Source: an uncultured Desulfobacterales bacterium | Lineage (GTDB): Bacteria > Desulfobacterota > Desulfobacteria > Desulfobacterales > JAFDCJ01 | Direction of reading: 5' to 3' | Assembly (NCBI GenBank): GCA_945787595.1 | Contig: CALZJV010000774.1 | Coordinates: forward strand, 1-6,014 | Length of the DNA: 6,014 bases | In this document: positions 4,543 to 6,014 of the stretch, one piece after another | How the letters are laid out: each line of letters begins with the position of its first letter | Numbering within the stretch: position 1 is the first letter of the stretch | The notes under the pieces: generated by a model | What the model was told of the DNA's origin: nothing | Seen by the model: the letters and a program-made list of their open reading frames with translations, nothing else | Databases searched by the model: none | Made by a program: the position numbers and the translations under genes

Positions 4543-5729
4543 ATGACAAAATATGATGTTAAGGACATTAAACTTGCCAAAGAGGGTGCCCTGCGAATTG
4601 AGTGGGCCAACCAGAATATGCCGGTTTTAAACCGCATTCAAAAACGTTTTGCGAAAGAAAAACCGCTAAAAGGAGTTCGTATCGGTGCCTGTCTGCATGT
4701 CACCACCGAAACGGCATCTTTGATGAAAACCCTCAAGGCCGGCGGTGCAAAAGTTTCTTTGTGTGCCTCCAATCCTCTGAGTACTCAGGATGATGTGGCC
4801 GCATCGTTGTCAAAAAACGATAAAATCCCGGTTTTTGCCATCAAGGGAGAAAACCATAAAACCTATTACGCCCACACAAGCGCAAGGAACTTTTAGCGGG
4901 TGTACGGGGCGGGACTGAAGAGACTACCACCGGTATAATTCGGCTGAGAAGCATGGCCGCCGACGGTGTCCTAGAATACCCGATCGTTGCGGTCAATGAC
5001 GCCCAAACAAAGCACTTTTTCGACAACCGTTATGGTACCGGACAAAGTACCATCGACGGAATCATCCGGGCGACGAATCGATTGCTGGCCGGATCTAATT
5101 TTGTGGTATGCGGCTATGGATGGTGCGGACGGGGAGTTGCCATGCGGGCCCGGGGAATGGGAGCCAACGTTATAGTGATCGAGGTTGACCCGCTGCCCGC
5201 CCTTGAGGCCGTCATGGACGGTTTTACCGTCATGCCGATCCGGAAAGCCGCCAGGGTTGGTGATTTCTTTTGCACCCTGACCGGCGACATCAATGTGATT
5301 CGCAAAGAGCATTTCATGATGATGAAAGACGGCGCCATTGTGGCCAACTCAGGTCATTTTAACGTTGAGCTGGATCTGGACGGTTTAAAAAAGATTGCAA
5401 AATCGACTCGCGTCATGCGGCCTTTCGTGGAGGAATTTACACTCAAGGATGGGCGCCGGATCAATATCCTGGGTGAGGGTCGGCTGATCAATCTTGCGGC
5501 CGCCGAAGGTCACCCCTCCAGTGTTATGGATATGAGTTTTGCCAACCAGGCGCTGAGCGTCGAATATATGGTGAAGCTTAAAAACCCGCTGGCTAAAGAA
5601 GTTTATGCGGTCCCGGAAAAAATTGATAAAATGATTGCCAAAGAAAAGCTGGCTGCCATGGGAATTGCCATCGACAGGCTCACCGCGGAACAGAAAAAGT
5701 ATCTGGCATCCTGGGAAATGGGAACCTAA
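4543..5729 (+). pseudogene. ahcY: S-adenosylhomocysteinase (SAH hydrolase), broken by internal deletion and frameshift
   Basis: The intact enzyme hydrolyses S-adenosylhomocysteine to adenosine and homocysteine using tightly bound NAD. Here it is split. The N-terminal part (4543-4896, 117 codons) carries LHVTTETA with catalytic His52 and ends soon after TYYAH. The C-terminal part is in another frame, from about 4878 to 5729. It carries GGTEETTTG (catalytic Glu), VNDAQTK and FDNRYGTGQS (catalytic Lys, Asp, Asn), the NAD-binding GYGWCGRG (5112-5135), SGHFNVEL and a normal end EQKKYLASWEMGT. Between them, near 4873-4880, the family's stretch with the MDDGADL motif and its catalytic Asp is missing. 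I infer a loss of roughly 73-76 nt (a number leaving remainder 1 on division by 3), which would restore about 419 codons. ATG 4953 could start a fragment, but it lacks a good ribosome-binding site. The rest is well preserved, so breakage looks recent, or it is a local sequence error. Confidence 0.88.
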
Positions 5730-5731
5730 TT

Positions 5732-5807
5732 GGAATGCGGCCTCCGGCCCGTAGGGGCCAATGGGGCCTACGCCCCGGAGGGAAGTGGGAATGCGGCCTC
5801 CGGCCCG
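5732..5807 (+). repeat. Direct repeat pair, 20-bp units 56 bp apart
   Basis: GGAATGCGGCCTCCGGCCCG occurs exactly at 5732-5751 and again at 5788-5807, in the G+C-rich spacer between the two convergent ahcY copies. The unit contains internal complementarity (GGCC, CCGG), like REP-family sequence. Confidence 0.8.
5741..5781. terminator. Hairpin between convergent ahcY copies, possible bidirectional terminator
   Basis: CCTCCGG (5741-5747) pairs with CCGGAGG (5775-5781). Inside it CGTAGG (5751-5756) pairs with CCTACG (5767-5772), with further C-G pairs around an AAT loop. The structure starts 12 nt after the stop of the plus-strand copy. No T-tract follows on either strand, so it is not a classical intrinsic terminator and may instead be a REP-like transcript-end hairpin. 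Confidence 0.45.
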
Positions 5808-5820
5808 GAAGCCGCCTTCC
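5807..5820 (-). terminator. Short hairpin directly after the minus-strand ahcY stop
   Basis: GGAAG (5807-5811) and CTTCC (5816-5820) form a five-pair stem around a CCGC loop, 2 nt beyond the minus-strand stop codon. There is no T-tract; a role in transcript ending is only a possibility. Confidence 0.3.
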
Positions 5821-5822
5821 GA

Positions 5823-6014
5823 TTACGTCCCCATTTCCCAGGACGCCAGATACTTTTTCTGTTCCGCGGTCAGCCTGTCAATCGTAATTCCCATGGCAGC
5901 CAGCTTCTCTTTGGCAATCATTTTATCAATTTTTTCTGGGACCGCATACACTTCTTTAGCCAGCGGTTTTTTAAGTTTCACCATATATTCGATGCTCAGC
6001 GCCTGGTTGGCAAA
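5823..6014 (-). CDS. ahcY: S-adenosylhomocysteinase, second copy, C-terminal 63 residues only (5' part beyond window)
   Basis: This is the 3' end of another SAH hydrolase gene, reading leftward and meeting the first copy tail to tail. The visible residues run from FANQALSIEY to KKYLASWEMGT and then TAA (5825-5823). They align without gaps to the last 63 codons of the plus-strand copy (5538-5729), with 13 nucleotide differences in 192. Only three are amino-acid changes (V to I, N to K, A to T, plus-strand copy to this copy); the other ten are silent. The visible part has no stop or frameshift. The catalytic and NAD-binding regions lie to the right of the window, so whether the gene is intact cannot be seen. 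If it is, it probably supplies the cell's SAH hydrolase activity in place of the broken copy. Confidence 0.92.
   Translation of the reverse strand, partial: FANQALSIEYMVKLKKPLAKEVYAVPEKIDKMIAKEKLAAMGITIDRLTAEQKKYLASWEMGT

What the first reader, a model, noticed from the sequence alone, without database searches (positions are those of the whole stretch)
5538..6014. Tail-to-tail inverted duplication of ahcY with mostly silent divergence
The last 192 nt of the plus-strand ahcY (5538-5729) recur in reverse complement at 5823-6014, 93 nt away. I count 13 differences, 10 silent. SAH hydrolase is normally single-copy. An assembly artefact or very recent copy would be near identical, and a neutral pseudogene would show more amino-acid changes. 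The pattern suggests both copies were long under selection, or that one arrived from a close relative. Converging transcripts would also be mutually antisense across the arms.
Basis: partly seen in the sequence, partly recalled or inferred. Interest (0 to 1): 0.72.

Follow-up and report, generated by a model that had tools for sequence, protein, structure and literature searches.

The report
Inverted gene-end repeat, probably assembly chimera
The end of a short environmental DNA contig carries a second, slightly different, back-to-front copy of the tail of a common housekeeping gene, most likely two related bacteria stitched together at a repeated hairpin, although a real second copy beside a broken first one is still possible.

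Summary
Positions 5538-5729 recur as reverse complement at 5823-6014, with 13 differences (10 silent, 3 replacements, no indel) and a 93-nt spacer.

(1) The plus-strand ahcY is not intact: it lacks 73 nt relative to relatives (junction 4875-4878), is frameshifted, and has I where 118 of 120 listed homologues have T. (2) The record is a 6014-nt contig that ends 192 nt into the second copy. (3) The spacer is palindromic repeat DNA whose motif is clearly dispersed in two of eight related genomes. (4) fdhA is 92.6% identical to genome G215, but metK and ahcY only 80-82%, with a dispersed MITE-like element in the gap.

The silent-biased divergence (dS 0.30, dN 0.02) shows two lineages with a working enzyme. 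It does not show both in one genome. None of 102 related loci with at least 500 nt of downstream DNA held has a second ahcY there.

Best reading (0.52): a chimeric contig tail joining sister strains at the palindrome. Main rival (0.40): a real tail-to-tail second copy that let the resident gene decay. Reads across 5730-5822 would decide.

The parts
4543..4896 (+). N-terminal piece of plus-strand ahcY (117 aa), ending at a frameshift-induced stop
   Evidence: ORF; matches TIGR00936 positions 1-109 of 416
4875..4878 (+). junction of the 73-nt gap relative to relatives (24 codons + 1 nt), which shifts the frame
   Evidence: MAFFT alignment to five relatives; the segment is present in all six genus-level genomes looked at; alignments to three genomes break at 4876
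4953..5729 (+). C-terminal piece of plus-strand ahcY (258 aa, starts at an internal Met)
   Evidence: TIGR00936 159-416; nearest homologue P0001 has T for I at its position 236 and otherwise the same residues
5538..5729 (+). plus arm of the inverted repeat (last 63 codons and stop)
5730..5822 (.). spacer: REP-like palindromic repeat DNA (20-nt unit beginning GGAATGCGGCCTCCGG at 5732 and again at 5788)
   Evidence: 5727-5826 folds at -56.1 kcal/mol, z -3.3; motif in related genomes
5823..6014 (-). minus arm: last 63 codons and stop of a second ahcY, cut by the contig end
   Evidence: contig length 6014
3134..4303 (+). metK, usual upstream neighbour of ahcY
   Evidence: TIGR01034 591.8 bits; metK match in 27 of the 30 relatives' loci printed
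2578..2793 (.). MITE-like dispersed element with 23-nt inverted ends, lying in the gap where affinity to genome G215 changes
   Evidence: inverted repeat I5; 38 of 40 G215 match rows fall on this stretch; identity profile

Best explanation
The inverted second tail is most likely a chimeric end of a metagenome contig. One strain's metK-ahcY segment was joined, at palindromic repeat DNA just downstream of ahcY, to the reverse complement of the same place in a sister strain about 7% diverged. The hairpin can pair with itself or its counterpart, so a library molecule or a small-k assembly path can turn back there and continue along the other strain's gene. The contig then ends 192 nt later. Shown: the arms, their divergence pattern, the palindromic spacer, the contig end, and no second copy beside ahcY in the relatives examined. 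Inferred: the mechanism of the join, and that no single genome carries the junction.
For: The contig is only 6014 nt and ends 192 nt into the second copy, 285 nt past the first stop; that is about a read or fragment length (inference). The spacer is palindromic, and its 16-mer occurs exactly at 13 places in 4 of 8 genus-level genomes: G203 6, G079 5, G170 1, G011 1. Relatives lack the arrangement: 0 of 102 loci with at least 500 nt of 3' flank have a second ahcY match. In G119, G186 and G148 the first long minus-strand ORF downstream is not ahcY (ORFs only). Close ahcY variants are plentiful in public metagenomes: 119 of the 120 listed are 88-100% identical, so a sister-strain partner is likely. 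The same contig changes affinity a second time, across another dispersed element: to G215, fdhA 92.6% but metK and ahcY 80-82%, while G119 is flat at 81-82%. Palindromes and trans inverted repeats are a described source of chimeric reads (PMC10908179, abstract read), and artificial palindromes after whole-genome amplification are described too (PMC6218980, abstract read).
Against: The plus copy is broken, which fits a genome with a spare copy better than a cell whose only SAH hydrolase is dead. No exact inverted match of 30 nt or more exists in 5400-6014 (longest 29 nt), so a large-k graph collapse does not explain the join. With one mismatch allowed, the spacer motif exceeds its reversed control clearly only in G079 (10 against 0) and G203 (12 against 2); in the other six genomes counts are near control. 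The window's N-terminal fragment stands for a cluster of 4 member sequences on 1 known contig; if the other members share the break, the gap at least is real. The affinity change could be ordinary recombination, and G148 shows a milder form of it (84% against 78-80%). No read data were available.
Confidence: 0.52

Rival explanations
1. Real locus: a second, intact ahcY lies tail-to-tail with the resident metK-linked copy, acquired from a close relative (or kept from an old duplication). The resident copy has since begun to decay because the new copy covers its function.
For: The plus copy has a 73-nt frameshifting gap and I at a site that is T in 118 and A in 2 of 120 listed homologues. The visible part of the minus copy is intact, with ordinary residues (the I-K-T combination occurs in 17 of 119). 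The arms belong to distinct lineages: P0001-P0005 carry the plus-arm tail exactly; nearest to the minus arm is P0006 with one change. Divergence under constraint, dN/dS 0.068.
Against: No second copy in the 3' flanks examined. The same break was seen only in the window's own protein among the proteins in hand, though its cluster has 4 members. The contig stops inside the copy, so its intactness is unknown beyond 63 codons. An old duplication would predict two-copy relatives; G041 and G302 have two full-length copies and G031 a full and a partial one, but on separate contigs.
Confidence: 0.4
2. Recent fold-back or tandem inversion duplication of one ahcY within one genome, followed by drift.
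For: Tail-to-tail geometry around a palindrome; similarity includes about 26 nt of 3' flank.
Against: dS 0.30 is too large for a recent event. At codon 8 all 7 genomic relatives compared have the minus-arm base, and the plus arm's V-N-A combination is shared with P0001-P0005, so the arms look like two lineages.
Confidence: 0.05
3. Sequencing error or amplification fold-back of a single molecule.
For: Inverted tails are produced by such artefacts in general (abstracts).
Against: 13 substitutions, no indel, 11 at third codon positions; errors would not respect codons.
Confidence: 0.03

Closest known systems
Chimeric reads at inverted-repeat and palindromic sequences (PDSM model, PMC10908179; abstract read)
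   Same: Join at a palindrome, partner inverted, from a similar but not identical molecule ('trans' inverted repeats).
   Different: That paper treats human short-read libraries; here the partner would be a sister strain in a metagenome, and no reads were available to show it.
REP sequences / bacterial interspersed mosaic elements (search listing and abstract starts only)
   Same: Short, intergenic, imperfectly palindromic, clustered, and dispersed in at least two related genomes.
   Different: Copy number in the window's own genome is unknown and modest in relatives; an associated TnpA-REP (RAYT) transposase was not looked for.
Gene duplication or xenologous replacement with decay of the resident copy (general knowledge)
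   Same: One broken copy beside an apparently intact copy of the same gene.
   Different: Linkage of the two in one genome is not established; the second copy is seen for only 63 codons.

Membership tests
Adenosylhomocysteinase (TIGR00936) | full-length protein above the curated cut-off (497.6 bits) | tested here: not met
   Plus copy scores 147.9 and 409.1 bits in two frames; minus piece 65 bits, cut by the contig end. The C piece alone does pass the cut-off of NF004005 (409.3 against 275). Homology is clear, an intact gene is not shown.
Adenosylhomocysteinase (TIGR00936) | metK-ahcY neighbourhood (a usual, not a strict feature) | tested here: met
   Plus copy follows metK; 27 of the 30 relatives' loci printed also have metK. 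The upstream side of the minus copy lies beyond the contig.
REP-like dispersed palindrome | imperfect palindrome in intergenic DNA | tested here: met
   5727-5826 folds at -56.1 kcal/mol, z -3.3, 0 of 200 shuffles as good.
REP-like dispersed palindrome | many copies per genome | tested here: inconclusive
   Exact 16-mer at 13 places in 4 of 8 related genomes; above the reversed control only in G079 and G203. 10 of the 13 places share the further motif CCTACGCCCCGG within 110 nt. Own genome not held.
REP-like dispersed palindrome | associated TnpA-REP / RAYT transposase | not tested
   No search made.
Real tail-to-tail gene duplication | both copies on one DNA molecule of one genome | not testable with these tools
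   No reads, no genome for the window.
Tandem inversion duplication | near-identical inverted arms | tested here: not met
   179 of 192 positions identical, dS 0.30.

The most novel reading that the evidence does not exclude
A gene replacement caught in the act: a free-living desulfobacterial lineage carries an orthologous ahcY from a sister species in tail-to-tail inversion beside its own metK-linked ahcY, separated only by REP-like hairpins, and the resident copy has just been inactivated by a 73-nt frameshifting deletion.
Probability: 0.32. Interest if true: 0.4.

Novelty: not a real feature. Interest (0 to 1): 0.13.

Why it matters
As an artefact it is a useful warning: in strain-rich samples a chimeric contig end can look like two selected paralogues, because its arms are true orthologues. 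Silent-biased divergence is then no proof of two copies in one genome. If real, it would be a small example of replacement of a housekeeping enzyme by a relative's copy, with the old copy decaying in place.

Tried and rejected
Self-fold-back artefact and sequencing error were rejected because the 13 changes respect codons. Recent duplication was disfavoured on dS 0.30. A plasmid or viral origin found no support: no match of 5400-6014 in the plasmid collection, and the best of 38 viral-contig loci with ahcY was 76% identical. Rfam gave 0 matches at gathering thresholds; the 10 sub-threshold matches in 4300-6014, to SRP, microRNA and one other family, I take as the effect of long hairpins. A promoter/terminator scan of 5400-6014 found no promoter and two weak terminator-like sites inside the coding arms (mean 0.8 in shuffles). 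A DNA search of the 8 genomes held for the family of G186, the same 8 as its genus, gave nothing closer than 84%. The protein search with the broken N-terminal piece showed no second example of the same break among its 120 listed proteins, of 4043 found. Paper searches for an ahcY duplicate (8 papers listed each) showed nothing on this arrangement.

Full report
What is there. The window is a 6014-nt contig (the window's own protein P0133 is listed with longest contig 6014) with no genome held for it. It carries fdhA on the minus strand (1-2351, cut at the left end), an intergenic region with a dispersed element, metK (3134-4303), ahcY on the plus strand, and the tail of a second ahcY on the minus strand (fdhA named from its sequence, recalled). 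The nearest genomes held (G186, G119, G011, G215, G148 and, for half the protein, G079; ahcY 88-89% identical) were reached through the order of G002, whose ahcY locus L002 is titled Desulfatirhabdium butyrativorans. A 94% homologue, P0036, is named from a Desulfobacteraceae bacterium.

The arms 5538-5729 and 5823-6014 differ at 13 of 192 positions, 10 silent, 3 replacing, no gaps. The repeat extends about 26 nt past both stops at lower identity. By Nei-Gojobori, dS is 0.301 and dN 0.0205. The best genomic relative of both arms is L124 (G119), at 82-83%; the other genus relatives that aligned lie at 73-80%. Among sequences whose DNA is in hand, the two arms are therefore each other's closest relatives.

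The plus-strand gene is broken. Relatives have 73 nt more at 4875-4878 (five); the segment is present in all six genus relatives looked at. The frame shifts and stops at 4894-4896, and the rest continues in another frame, with an internal Met at 4953. At homologue position 236 the window has I, where 118 of 120 listed homologues have T and 2 have A. Near-identical proteins without the break exist in other metagenomes, P0001 to P0005, on contigs of 1244 to 1739 nt (P0002 is 394 aa, the others 418-419). Among the 252 proteins in hand the broken tail occurs only in the window's own P0133. P0133 stands for a cluster of 4 member sequences on 1 known contig, and I could not see the other members.

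The two tails represent two lineages. P0001-P0005 carry the plus-arm tail exactly. None of the 132 proteins in hand that are long enough to hold the tail carries the minus-arm tail exactly; the nearest is P0006 with one difference. At the three replaced sites the minus arm's combination I-K-T occurs in 17 of 119 homologues and the plus arm's V-N-A in 5 of 119; one of the 120, P0101, was dropped because it lacks the motif used to cut out the tail. These are the best 120 of 8000 scored, so absence holds only for the listed ones.

Second copies next to ahcY are not usual. Of 110 loci of relatives (80 and 30), 102 have at least 500 nt held downstream of ahcY, and none of the 110 has a second match at 1e-5; the two sets share only a few 60-mers in three pairs. 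The 8 longer stretches are from genomes already among the 30 and agree. In G119, G186 and G148 the first long minus-strand ORF downstream is not ahcY. In the order-wide survey 349 of 389 genomes match at 1e-40, and 27 of these, by my count of the table, have two matches. Among the matches listed, G041 and G302 have two full-length copies and G031 a full and a partial one, each on separate contigs; others are fragments of one gene (G252, G261, G316) or involve distant forms, and not all matches were listed. So two ahcY-like genes per genome do occur, but I saw none in this geometry.

The spacer is palindromic repeat DNA. It holds a 20-nt unit twice (5732, 5788), and 5727-5826 folds at -56.1 kcal/mol, z -3.3. 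The 16-mer GGAATGCGGCCTCCGG occurs exactly at 13 places in 4 of 8 genus-level genomes: G203 6, G079 5, G170 1, G011 1. With one mismatch, the counts exceed the reversed control clearly only in G079 (10 against 0) and G203 (12 against 2); in the other six they are near control. Of the 13 places, 10 share the further motif CCTACGCCCCGG within 110 nt; at G170 (L185) the sequence is nearly that of 5732-5783. In G011 and G186 the 3' flank of ahcY itself holds related short repeats in both orientations. Such palindromes could favour both real rearrangement and chimeric joins.

The contig has a second anomaly. To G215, fdhA is 92.6% identical but metK and ahcY only 80-82%, while G119 is flat at 81-82% and G148 drops more mildly, from 84% to 78-80%; G079 shows 83% and 84% for fdhA and metK. 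The change lies in 2382-3112, which holds a 216-nt element with 23-nt inverted ends (2578-2793). That element accounts for 38 of the 40 match rows in G215, a lower bound since only 37 of 81 candidate stretches were scored. This can be recombination or another chimeric join.

Weighing. A real second copy would explain why the resident gene could break. A chimeric end explains why the contig stops 285 nt past the first stop codon, why the join falls in a palindrome, why no relative examined shows the arrangement, and why the divergence looks like that of orthologues from sister strains. Against a simple graph error, the longest exact inverted match in 5400-6014 is 29 nt, so a chimeric molecule or a small-k join would be needed. 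I give 0.52 to the chimera and 0.40 to a real locus; without reads this cannot be settled.

Literature. Abstracts of PMC10908179 and PMC6218980 were read; REP papers were seen only as a search listing. The searches listed 10, 8, 5 and 8 papers; from titles and abstract starts none describes this arrangement.

Noticed in passing
window 2578-2793: MITE-like element, 23-nt inverted ends, 38 match rows in G215 and some in G203, G148 and G119; the fdhA-metK gap of G215 is about 190 nt shorter than the window's.
   Followed up: partly
window 1-2382 versus 3112-5725: fdhA is 92.6% identical to G215, metK and ahcY only about 80-82%; sharp change of affinity inside the intergenic region.
   Followed up: partly
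window 1776-1778 (-): In-frame TGA in fdhA in the context HQARI-TGA-HSATVAAL, conserved in the five related genomes where that stretch was held (G215, G119, G148, G186, G011): very likely the selenocysteine codon of formate dehydrogenase (family knowledge recalled).
   Followed up: partly
window 4411-4496: Second hairpin repeat (33-nt arms, 88% complementary) between metK and ahcY, REP-like in look.
   Followed up: no
P0143, P0195, P0137: Other short-contig ahcY proteins that run along 90-99% identical to the window's piece and then switch to unrelated sequence, perhaps further chimeric or broken ends in this gene.
   Followed up: no
L133 (G154:C1:94158-95411): Full-length ahcY relative with one in-frame TAG.
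   Followed up: no
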